Part shown: piece by piece, positions 16,229 through 17,879 of the stretch
Position numbering within the stretch: position 1 is the stretch's first letter
Layout of the letters: every line of letters begins with the position of its first letter
Source: Synechococcus sp. KORDI-49
GTDB taxonomy: Bacteria; Cyanobacteriota; Cyanobacteriia; PCC-6307; Cyanobiaceae
Assembly (NCBI RefSeq): GCF_000737575.1
Contig: NZ_CP006270.1
Span: 251,163 to 315,162, forward strand
Direction: 5' to 3'
DNA length: 64,000 nucleotides
Position numbers and translations under genes: made by a program
The notes under the pieces: model-generated
The model's input: the letters and a program-made list of their open reading frames with translations, nothing else
The model's database searches: none
What the model was told of the DNA's origin: nothing

Positions 16229-16330
16229 ATGCTGTTCACCCTGGCCTGGGCATCTCTAGCCGCCATATTCAGCTTCTCCATTGCGATGGTCGTCTGGGGT
16301 CGCAACGGTGACGGAACTCTGAAGTTCTGA
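16229..16330 (+). CDS. petN: Cytochrome b6-f complex subunit PetN (33 aa)
   Basis: This short gene encodes a single membrane helix followed by the diagnostic ending [17 protein letters not shown]. PetN is a small structural subunit of the cytochrome b6-f complex in the thylakoid membrane. The gene is divergent from clpS, 71 bases away. A second tiny membrane-protein frame follows after five bases. Confidence 0.93.
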
Positions 16331-16335
16331 GGCCG

Positions 16336-16467
16336 TTGCCGTCCCTTGATGGTTCCCTGATCAGTCAGTCACTGGCGGTCTCGGCAGCCGTTCTGCTGGT
16401 GTTCGTGAGTGTATCGGTGATCTACCTGTCGCTGATCGAGTGGAAAGACCGACGCCGACGCCGCTGA
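16336..16467 (+). CDS. Tiny single-helix membrane protein (43 aa), unknown
   Basis: A TTG start (16336), preceded by GAGG at the end of petN, opens a frame whose middle is a clear membrane helix (LAVSAAVLLVFVSVSVIYLS). It ends in the basic tail EWKDRRRRR. Its stop overlaps the ATG of the next gene (TGATG), which suggests translational coupling and supports the frame being real. The layout of helix plus positive tail resembles small photosystem or cytochrome subunits, but no family is recognised. Confidence 0.55.
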   Translation: MPSLDGSLISQSLAVSAAVLLVFVSVSVIYLSLIEWKDRRRRR

Positions 16468-17879
16468 TGAAGGTCGCGGCAGGTCTGTTTCGCCGCTTGG
16501 CGACCTTTCCGATCACCGCCCCGGCACTGCTGTTGCTGCTGATGCTGTCCACGGCTTGGCTGACGCATGTCGCCCGGCGGGAGCTCTCGCCCAGAGATTC
16601 TCTGACGCAGCAGCTGGATCTGCTCAGCGCATCCCTGGTGATGTTGCAGAGCTTTCAAGTGGATTCCGGGCAATCCGTTCCGGAGATCTGGTCTGAACGG
16701 CTCGGTCCGGAGCAGGCCTCCCGACGCTGGCGTGCCTCCAGGGAGCAGATCTGGTGGAAAGGGTGGGTTTCCTCGGGCAGCAGTGTGCTTGTGCTGCCAC
16801 GCCAACAGGGCTCAACGGCGGGCAACAGTCCTCTGGATCGGCTCCTGCCCGGGTTTGATCTTGTCTTTTCCGATCCCGCTGAACGCAGCAGCTTCATGGA
16901 GTCGTTGCGTCCCCAGCCAGGGGACCCATCACCGTTGGAACGGTTCTGTCTGAGGGCCCTCGAGGTCTCAACGGCTGTGCGATGGACGCCGGAGGCCCTG
17001 CTTCCGATGGCCGGACCACTCGCTTCGATGCTCAATTCGGCCTCCCATGGCTGTCTTGTCCTGAATGTCGACGCCAAGGATCTGCGTTGGAGCGGGGTGT
17101 TTGCCAGTCGACCGCTTCGGGATGCCCCACGACGACTCAAGCCTCCAAGAGGGACAACGCCTCTGGCACCGGGCAGGCTTCGGGCTCCCATGGCTTCCGA
17201 TCCTTCGCTGCTGCCGATGTTGCAGCTGGACAGTTCAACTGCGGAGCCCGTGCTCAGTGGAATTCTGAATCGCCCTCTGATCCGGGACGGTCTTGAGAAG
17301 GACTACGGGTTGACGCTGGCCATGCGTCGCCAGCTTCTTGAGGTGCCGATGCGCCTGAGTGTCGAACCTCAGGCGAAAGGTCCTTTCCAGGCCCGTGTGC
17401 AGATCGATCTGCAGCTCCCCTATCGGGATCCGGACGTGAGACGAGCACTTGAGTTGACGGCGACCCGTCTCGAGAAGCAGGGATTCCGGCGACGACGCGT
17501 CGATCTGGTTCACCCGGATGGCCAGACCGTCATCCGGGCGACTCTCTGGCTCGATGATGACGAGGACCCTGGACGGGTGCTTGGGGGATGGACCTGGCTG
17601 CCCAGAGATGCAAGCCATGGACACCCCGCTCTGCTCCGCATGGTGCTTGCCGGTGCGCCCACGCTGAAACGCTCGGCAACGGCCGAGCTCGGCTCCGACA
17701 GCAGCATGAATCTCATGCTGTCTCCAAGGGATCTGGTCACCCACGGTCTGCTGCCCGTCAGCTGGCCGACTGTGGTGCGATCAGCGGAAAGGCTGATGCT
17801 GCGCACGATGCCGCTGCGTGGGCAGACAGCCCGGGACGACTCCTGGCGATGGGTGCGTGGTCAGCTCGATGTTCCCTGA
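16467..17879 (+). CDS. Membrane-anchored hypothetical protein (470 aa)
   Basis: The start MKVAAGLFRRLATFP at 16467 overlaps the stop of the preceding small gene; the frame extends to 16440 but adds nothing conserved. One N-terminal membrane helix (APALLLLLMLSTAWLTHVA) is followed by a large, probably lumenal or periplasmic domain rich in Arg and Leu, without recognisable motifs. Position after petN and before thf1 hints at a thylakoid role, but this is only context. The end overlaps the convergent thf1 gene by 19 bases. Confidence 0.7.
   Translation: MKVAAGLFRRLATFPITAPALLLLLMLSTAWLTHVARRELSPRDSLTQQLDLLSASLVMLQSFQVDSGQSVPEIWSERLGPEQASRRWRASREQIWWKGWVSSGSSVLVLPRQQGSTAGNSPLDRLLPGFDLVFSDPAERSSFMESLRPQPGDPSPLERFCLRALEVSTAVRWTPEALLPMAGPLASMLNSASHGCLVLNVDAKDLRWSGVFASRPLRDAPRRLKPPRGTTPLAPGRLRAPMASDPSLLPMLQLDSSTAEPVLSGILNRPLIRDGLEKDYGLTLAMRRQLLEVPMRLSVEPQAKGPFQARVQIDLQLPYRDPDVRRALELTATRLEKQGFRRRRVDLVHPDGQTVIRATLWLDDDEDPGRVLGGWTWLPRDASHGHPALLRMVLAGAPTLKRSATAELGSDSSMNLMLSPRDLVTHGLLPVSWPTVVRSAERLMLRTMPLRGQTARDDSWRWVRGQLDVP

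What the first reader, a model, noticed from the sequence alone, without database searches (positions are those of the whole stretch)
16336..16467. Overlooked 43-residue membrane protein between petN and a coupled gene
A TTG-started frame with a ribosome site, a perfect helix and a basic tail ends in a TGATG overlap with the next gene. Size, topology and position right after petN make it a candidate for an undescribed small thylakoid subunit or assembly factor.
Basis: partly seen in the sequence, partly recalled or inferred. Interest (0 to 1): 0.55.

Follow-up and report, generated by a model that had tools for sequence, protein, structure and literature searches.

The report
Widespread small membrane protein beside petN
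The short reading frame next to petN is a real gene found in nearly all cyanobacteria searched, and it has decayed in relatives that gave up photosynthesis but kept the cytochrome b6f complex, so it probably serves photosynthetic electron flow rather than b6f alone.

Summary
The frame is real and much more widespread than the finding supposes. A profile of its relatives matches 373 of 388 genomes of the class, including two of Gloeobacter size. Among loci fetched because they match, it sits directly behind petN in 36 of 36 of the window's family and 39 of 45 others. It is under strong purifying selection. The core reads LLxxVxxxVxYL[ST]xxEWRDRRR. It is not wholly overlooked: by position it is Synechocystis sgl0002, a 49-residue hypothetical already noted as co-expressed with photosynthesis genes. 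No Pfam, NCBIfam or PDB family was found to cover it.

The informative result is a natural experiment. Two UCYN-A-like genomes keep PsaA and b6f, lack a PsbA match, and keep the gene under selection. A constitutive b6f subunit is therefore unlikely. A photosynthesis-specific factor working where b6f meets photosystem I fits best. The claimed ribosome site (3 of 57 loci) and TGATG coupling (2 of 58) are not conserved.

The parts
16229..16330 (+). petN, cytochrome b6f subunit VIII
   Evidence: PF03742, E 5.6e-14, own genome; frame
16336..16467 (+). 43-residue small membrane protein gene (sgl0002-like), TTG start
   Evidence: homologues; purifying selection
16372..16437 (+). predicted transmembrane helix, residues 13-34, with the conserved YLS
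   Evidence: hydropathy; AlphaFold2 helix 4-42; alignments
16438..16464 (+). conserved basic tail EWKDRRRRR, residues 35-43
   Evidence: alignments
16467..17879 (+). next frame, 470 residues, fast-evolving hypothetical of the window's family; probably not part of the system
   Evidence: 65 of 80 named loci match, mostly near 30% identity; no Pfam or NCBIfam family

Best explanation
The frame is a member of an ancient, nearly universal cyanobacterial family of small one-helix membrane proteins, encoded directly behind petN and probably translated by ribosomes that have just finished petN. The helix should sit with its N-terminus in the lumen or periplasm and its basic tail on the cytoplasmic face (positive-inside rule). 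It most likely acts as an accessory or assembly factor of photosynthetic electron transport on the photosystem I side, at the point where cytochrome b6f feeds photosystem I, for example stabilising a b6f-photosystem I contact or cyclic electron flow. It is not needed for b6f as such. Shown: the gene, its conservation, the petN linkage, selection, no match among solved chains, loss together with PsaA while b6f genes stay, retention with PsaA where PsbA is absent. Inferred: topology, translation by coupling, a partner at photosystem I, and the tail as a docking site.
For: Presence in 373 of 388 class genomes. petN within 250 bases upstream on the same strand in 36 of 36 family loci, 39 of 45 other class loci and 15 of 15 loci of family f31, all loci having been chosen because they match. 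Four reduced g193 genomes have no match and only broken remains behind petN. The same four keep PetN and PetB, D, A, C as open frames, with no PsaA match and PsbA only as stop-ridden pieces. dN is well below dS for the pet genes compared. G611, G631 and G607 have the exact chromosome lengths printed for the spheroid bodies of Epithemia turgida and Rhopalodia gibberula and for PCC 8801. Such endosymbionts are said to keep complete respiratory electron transport, and thylakoids in Epithemia species (passages). Two UCYN-A-like genomes keep PsaA and b6f, lack a PsbA match at E 1e-5, and keep the gene with dS 0.81, dN 0.12 between them. sgl0002 is in a co-expression cluster with photosystem, phycobilisome and b6f genes.
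Against: The endosymbiont contrast rests on about two evolutionary events, one loss and one retention, and genome reduction itself removes genes. In the UCYN-A-like copies the EWRDRRR tail is gone, so part of the function may be lost there or tied to something they lack. The co-expression cluster holds more photosystem II genes (15) than photosystem I genes (8), so expression does not single out photosystem I. Position behind petN argues for b6f itself. One draft genome with petN has no detectable copy (G549). I found no biochemical data.
Confidence: 0.5

Rival explanations
1. It is a small subunit or assembly factor of the cytochrome b6f complex itself, made together with PetN.
For: petN linkage across the class, genomes of Gloeobacter size included; size and one-helix form like PetG, L, M, N; the co-expression cluster contains three b6f genes.
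Against: Four endosymbiont genomes keep petA, B, C, D and N while this gene is wreckage. No solved chain matches with either profile or with the protein of a genome of the size I recall for Thermosynechococcus BP-1.
Confidence: 0.2
2. It is a small photosystem II protein or photosystem II assembly factor.
For: Weak similarity to the PsbZ model in 6 of 30 and 8 of 32 members, best E 0.0013; 15 photosystem II genes in the co-expression cluster; the tail motif is lost in the UCYN-A-like genomes, which lack a PsbA match.
Against: The gene itself is kept under purifying selection in those genomes. One predicted helix, whereas PsbZ has two (recalled). No match among solved photosystem II chains apart from PsbX at E 1.1.
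Confidence: 0.13
3. It is a general photosynthetic-membrane or light-stress regulator (for example acting on chlorophyll proteins, proteases or lipid surface charge) with no fixed complex.
For: Basic tail; no match among solved chains; decays although thylakoids are reported to persist in such endosymbionts.
Against: Strong sequence conservation and petN linkage suggest a specific partner.
Confidence: 0.14
4. The frame is not a protein gene, or acts only as a translated leader for the next gene.
For: Non-ATG start and TGATG overlap in the window.
Against: Conservation, selection and independence from the next gene: overlap in 2 of 58 loci, next gene in 65 of 80.
Confidence: 0.01

Closest known systems
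Synechocystis sgl0002 (hypothetical, 49 residues)
   Same: Same place directly behind petN on the same strand (159812-159961 and 160004-160093), similar size, one predicted hydrophobic domain, photosynthesis co-expression.
   Different: Sequence not compared: no Synechocystis 6803 genome was recognised among the genomes searched. The identification is by position and description.
PetN, PetG, PetL, PetM (small b6f subunits)
   Same: One-helix proteins under 50 residues; PetN is the neighbour gene.
   Different: No match to their solved chains, nor to their Pfam models among the families shown (25 of 48 weak ones); the new family is not retained with b6f in the four endosymbiont genomes.
PsbZ (Ycf9)
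   Same: Weak similarity in a minority of members.
   Different: PsbZ has two helices (recalled); best E 0.0013; gene kept where no PsbA match exists.
NdhP and NdhQ (small NDH-1 subunits)
   Same: Small cyanobacterial proteins of 40 and 46 residues.
   Different: Listed as separate Synechocystis genes; no solved cyanobacterial NDH-1 chain matches.

Membership tests
sgl0002-type family | gene directly behind petN, same strand | tested here: met
   36 of 36 family loci and 39 of 45 other class loci, all chosen because they match
sgl0002-type family | sequence similarity to sgl0002 itself | not tested
   no Synechocystis 6803 sequence in hand; position only
cytochrome b6f small subunits | match to a Pfam model or solved chain of a b6f subunit | tested here: not met
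   (one search shows 25 of 48 weak families)
cytochrome b6f small subunits | retained wherever the complex is retained | tested here: not met
   4 of 4 endosymbiont genomes keep petA, B, C, D, N but not this gene
PsbZ | clear model match and two helices | tested here: not met
   best member E 0.0013; one helix predicted
PsbZ or photosystem II subunits | lost with photosystem II | tested here: not met
   2 of 2 UCYN-A-like genomes without a PsbA match keep the gene
NDH-1 small subunits (NdhP, NdhQ) | match to a solved cyanobacterial NDH-1 chain | tested here: not met
   (one search lists only NADH-ubiquinone oxidoreductase chain 1 at E 0.15 or worse)
photosystem I accessory proteins | physical association with photosystem I | not testable with these tools
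   only co-retention with PsaA tested: 3 of 3 genomes with a PsaA match have the gene, 0 of 4 without

The most novel reading that the evidence does not exclude
A previously uncharacterised, ancestral component of oxygenic photosynthesis, present in nearly all cyanobacteria including Gloeobacter, that joins cytochrome b6f to photosystem I (supercomplex or cyclic flow) and is dispensable when b6f serves respiration alone.
Probability: 0.3. Interest if true: 0.82.

Novelty: new member of a known kind. Interest (0 to 1): 0.58.

Why it matters
Nearly every cyanobacterial genome searched carries this protein and no solved chain matches it, so the parts list of cyanobacterial photosynthesis may still be incomplete. 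The endosymbionts separate two roles of cytochrome b6f, respiratory and photosynthetic, and this gene follows the photosynthetic one. That makes a direct question testable in a model strain: what does photosystem I need from the b6f neighbourhood that respiration does not?

Tried and rejected
Rejected: spurious frame (conservation, selection). Rejected: cistron coupled to the next gene (overlap 2 of 58 loci; no match to the next gene in 15 of 80 named loci, at least three of them cut short). No sign of a viral origin (no match). Weak hits to PsbZ, HemY_N, TRAP-alpha, ND1 and others are spread over minorities of members and I take them for one-helix noise. A Synechocystis 6803 genome to check sgl0002 by sequence was sought in one genus (4 genomes) and one family (38 genomes) and not recognised.

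Genomes without a match: 22 of the 44 unmatched ones were checked for petN. 18 lack petN over the cut-off too (assembly gaps likely). Of the four with petN, two are spheroid bodies, G540 is cut at a contig end, and G549 remains unexplained (a 750-contig assembly; L236, of the same genus, has no petN beside the gene). In family f31 one further miss, G644, also lacks petN. Dropped rows: L022 and L028 from the selection count (N in the core); L062, L068, L076 and L083 from the start count because my motif missed them, and L088 as a repeat of a genome already in hand.

Papers: apart from those cited, I saw only listings and passages of PMC12903740 and PMC2663038, which do not treat this gene in what I saw. 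Not done: fold search (one helix would be meaningless), plastid genomes (none held).

Full report
Observation. The frame 16336-16467 is as described: TTG start, 43 residues, five bases behind the petN stop, TGA overlapping the ATG at 16467. petN is confirmed by its Pfam model. The best hydrophobic stretch is residues 13-31 at mean hydropathy 2.6, with a +4 tail, and AlphaFold2 on 22 window and the search for related loci sequences gives a single helix 4-42 at mean pLDDT 91.9.

Is it a gene? The 43-residue protein finds 270 of 300 genomes of the family at E up to 1. An alignment of 30 relatives (A1) finds 373 of 388 genomes of the class at E up to 0.1, 325 of 334 among the more complete ones. 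Family and class are not named by the tool; the named loci are Synechococcus, Cyanobium, Prochlorococcus and the like, so I take them as Cyanobiaceae and Cyanobacteriia. Among the matches listed (the lists are capped) the only stop is one terminal TAG (G028). In the genus, pS is 0.65 against pN 0.17 over a 36-codon core, all pairs of 28 of 30 loci. The invariant residues of A1 are L19, L20, F22, Y29, L30, S31, D37, R39 and R40. Across the class the consensus is LAxxAxxLLVxVTGGVxYLTxxEWRDRRRR, with one invariant tyrosine.

Where does it sit? All loci counted here were fetched because they match. petN lies within 250 bases upstream on the same strand in 36 of 36 family loci (L061-L096), 25 of 30 and 14 of 15 other class loci, and 15 of 15 loci of family f31. 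The six exceptions keep the gene without petN directly beside it, so it is not kept merely by hitchhiking. In the window's family the first start codon lies between 8 bases before and 40 bases behind the petN stop in 57 of 61 loci, with GTG 29, TTG 17, ATG 11; three loci show no usual start and one starts further away. A purine-rich ribosome-site tetramer precedes it in 3 of 57, so termination-reinitiation behind petN is the likelier way of translation; this is inference. The next gene is a different matter: it matches in 65 of 80 named loci, mostly near 30% identity, and in none of the seven loci titled Prochlorococcus, and the TGATG overlap occurs in 2 of 58 loci, one being the window.

Known or not? 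Table 2 of PMC5126843 (section 12 read; passages) lists petN sml0004 at 160004-160093 and sgl0002, 49 residues, hypothetical, at 159812-159961, both minus. PMC4770689 (passages read) puts sgl0002 in a co-expression cluster of 43 genes (15 photosystem II, 8 photosystem I, 3 b6f, 12 phycobilisome), notes one hydrophobic domain and the vicinity of petN, and suggests a thylakoid location. A search of the held library for sgl0002 gives only these two papers. No Pfam or NCBIfam model gave more than weak hits. No solved chain matches convincingly, including with the protein of a genome of 2,593,857 bases, the size I recall for Thermosynechococcus BP-1, whose complexes are well represented among solved structures (recalled). 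A quantitative Synechocystis proteome missed even PetN, which its authors ascribe to size, hydrophobicity and resistance to trypsin (passage, PMC9958174), so lack of mass-spectrometry data says little.

Natural experiment. In family f31, 45 of 50 genomes match. The five misses are one draft without petN (G644) and four single-contig genomes of genus g193 (G611, G631, G669, G670), while three larger genomes of that genus match. G611, G631 and the free-living G607 have exactly the lengths given for the spheroid bodies of Epithemia turgida and Rhopalodia gibberula and for PCC 8801 (PMC5638926, passages); G669 and G670 are presumed kin. All four have an intact petN followed by broken remains of the small gene. 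A joined query shows PetB, PetD, PetA and PetC in all four, no PsaA match, and PsbA only as stop-ridden fragments. The open frames of the pet genes were confirmed in fetched DNA, and pairwise dN is far below dS where computed (PetB in one pair only, because my motif missed some copies). PMC11070190 (passages) states that such endosymbionts keep complete respiratory electron transport and that thylakoids are seen in Epithemia species. So the gene decays while b6f genes, and by that report thylakoids and respiration, stay. The R. gibberula body keeps nine of ten chlorophyll genes without signs of decay (passage) yet has already lost this one.

The converse case is G635 and G636 (1,491,611 and 1,443,806 bases, taken to be UCYN-A by size, recalled, and by gene content). 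They keep b6f and PsaA, have no PsbA match at E 1e-5, and keep the small gene behind petN, with dS 0.81 and dN 0.12 between them and Fisher p 4e-5 on the counts. Their tail has lost the EWRDRRR motif. UCYN-A is reported to lack photosystem II and to transcribe b6f and photosystem I genes highly (passages, PMC4804200).

Reading. Together these point away from a constitutive partner in b6f, and, on the papers' statement only, in NDH-1, ATP synthase or oxidase; away from photosystem II as the only partner; and toward photosystem I or the photosynthetic use of b6f. The contrast is about two evolutionary events, so confidence is moderate. Presence in two genomes of 4,659,019 and 4,724,791 bases, which I take to be Gloeobacter (recalled sizes), with petN adjacent, would place the gene before thylakoids.

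Noticed in passing
   Followed up: partly
L292, L293, L294, L295: Behind an intact petN, four reduced endosymbiont genomes carry broken remains of the small gene, decayed to different degrees.
   Followed up: yes
L287, L288: In two UCYN-A-like genomes the small protein keeps its helix but has lost the otherwise strongly conserved EWRDRRR tail.
   Followed up: partly
L223, L229, L230, L234, L236, L250: Loci where the small gene persists without petN directly beside it, so the pair can separate without loss of the gene.
   Followed up: partly
L257: One draft genome (G549) has petN followed by a terminator-like stretch and no match for the small gene in the assembly.
   Followed up: no
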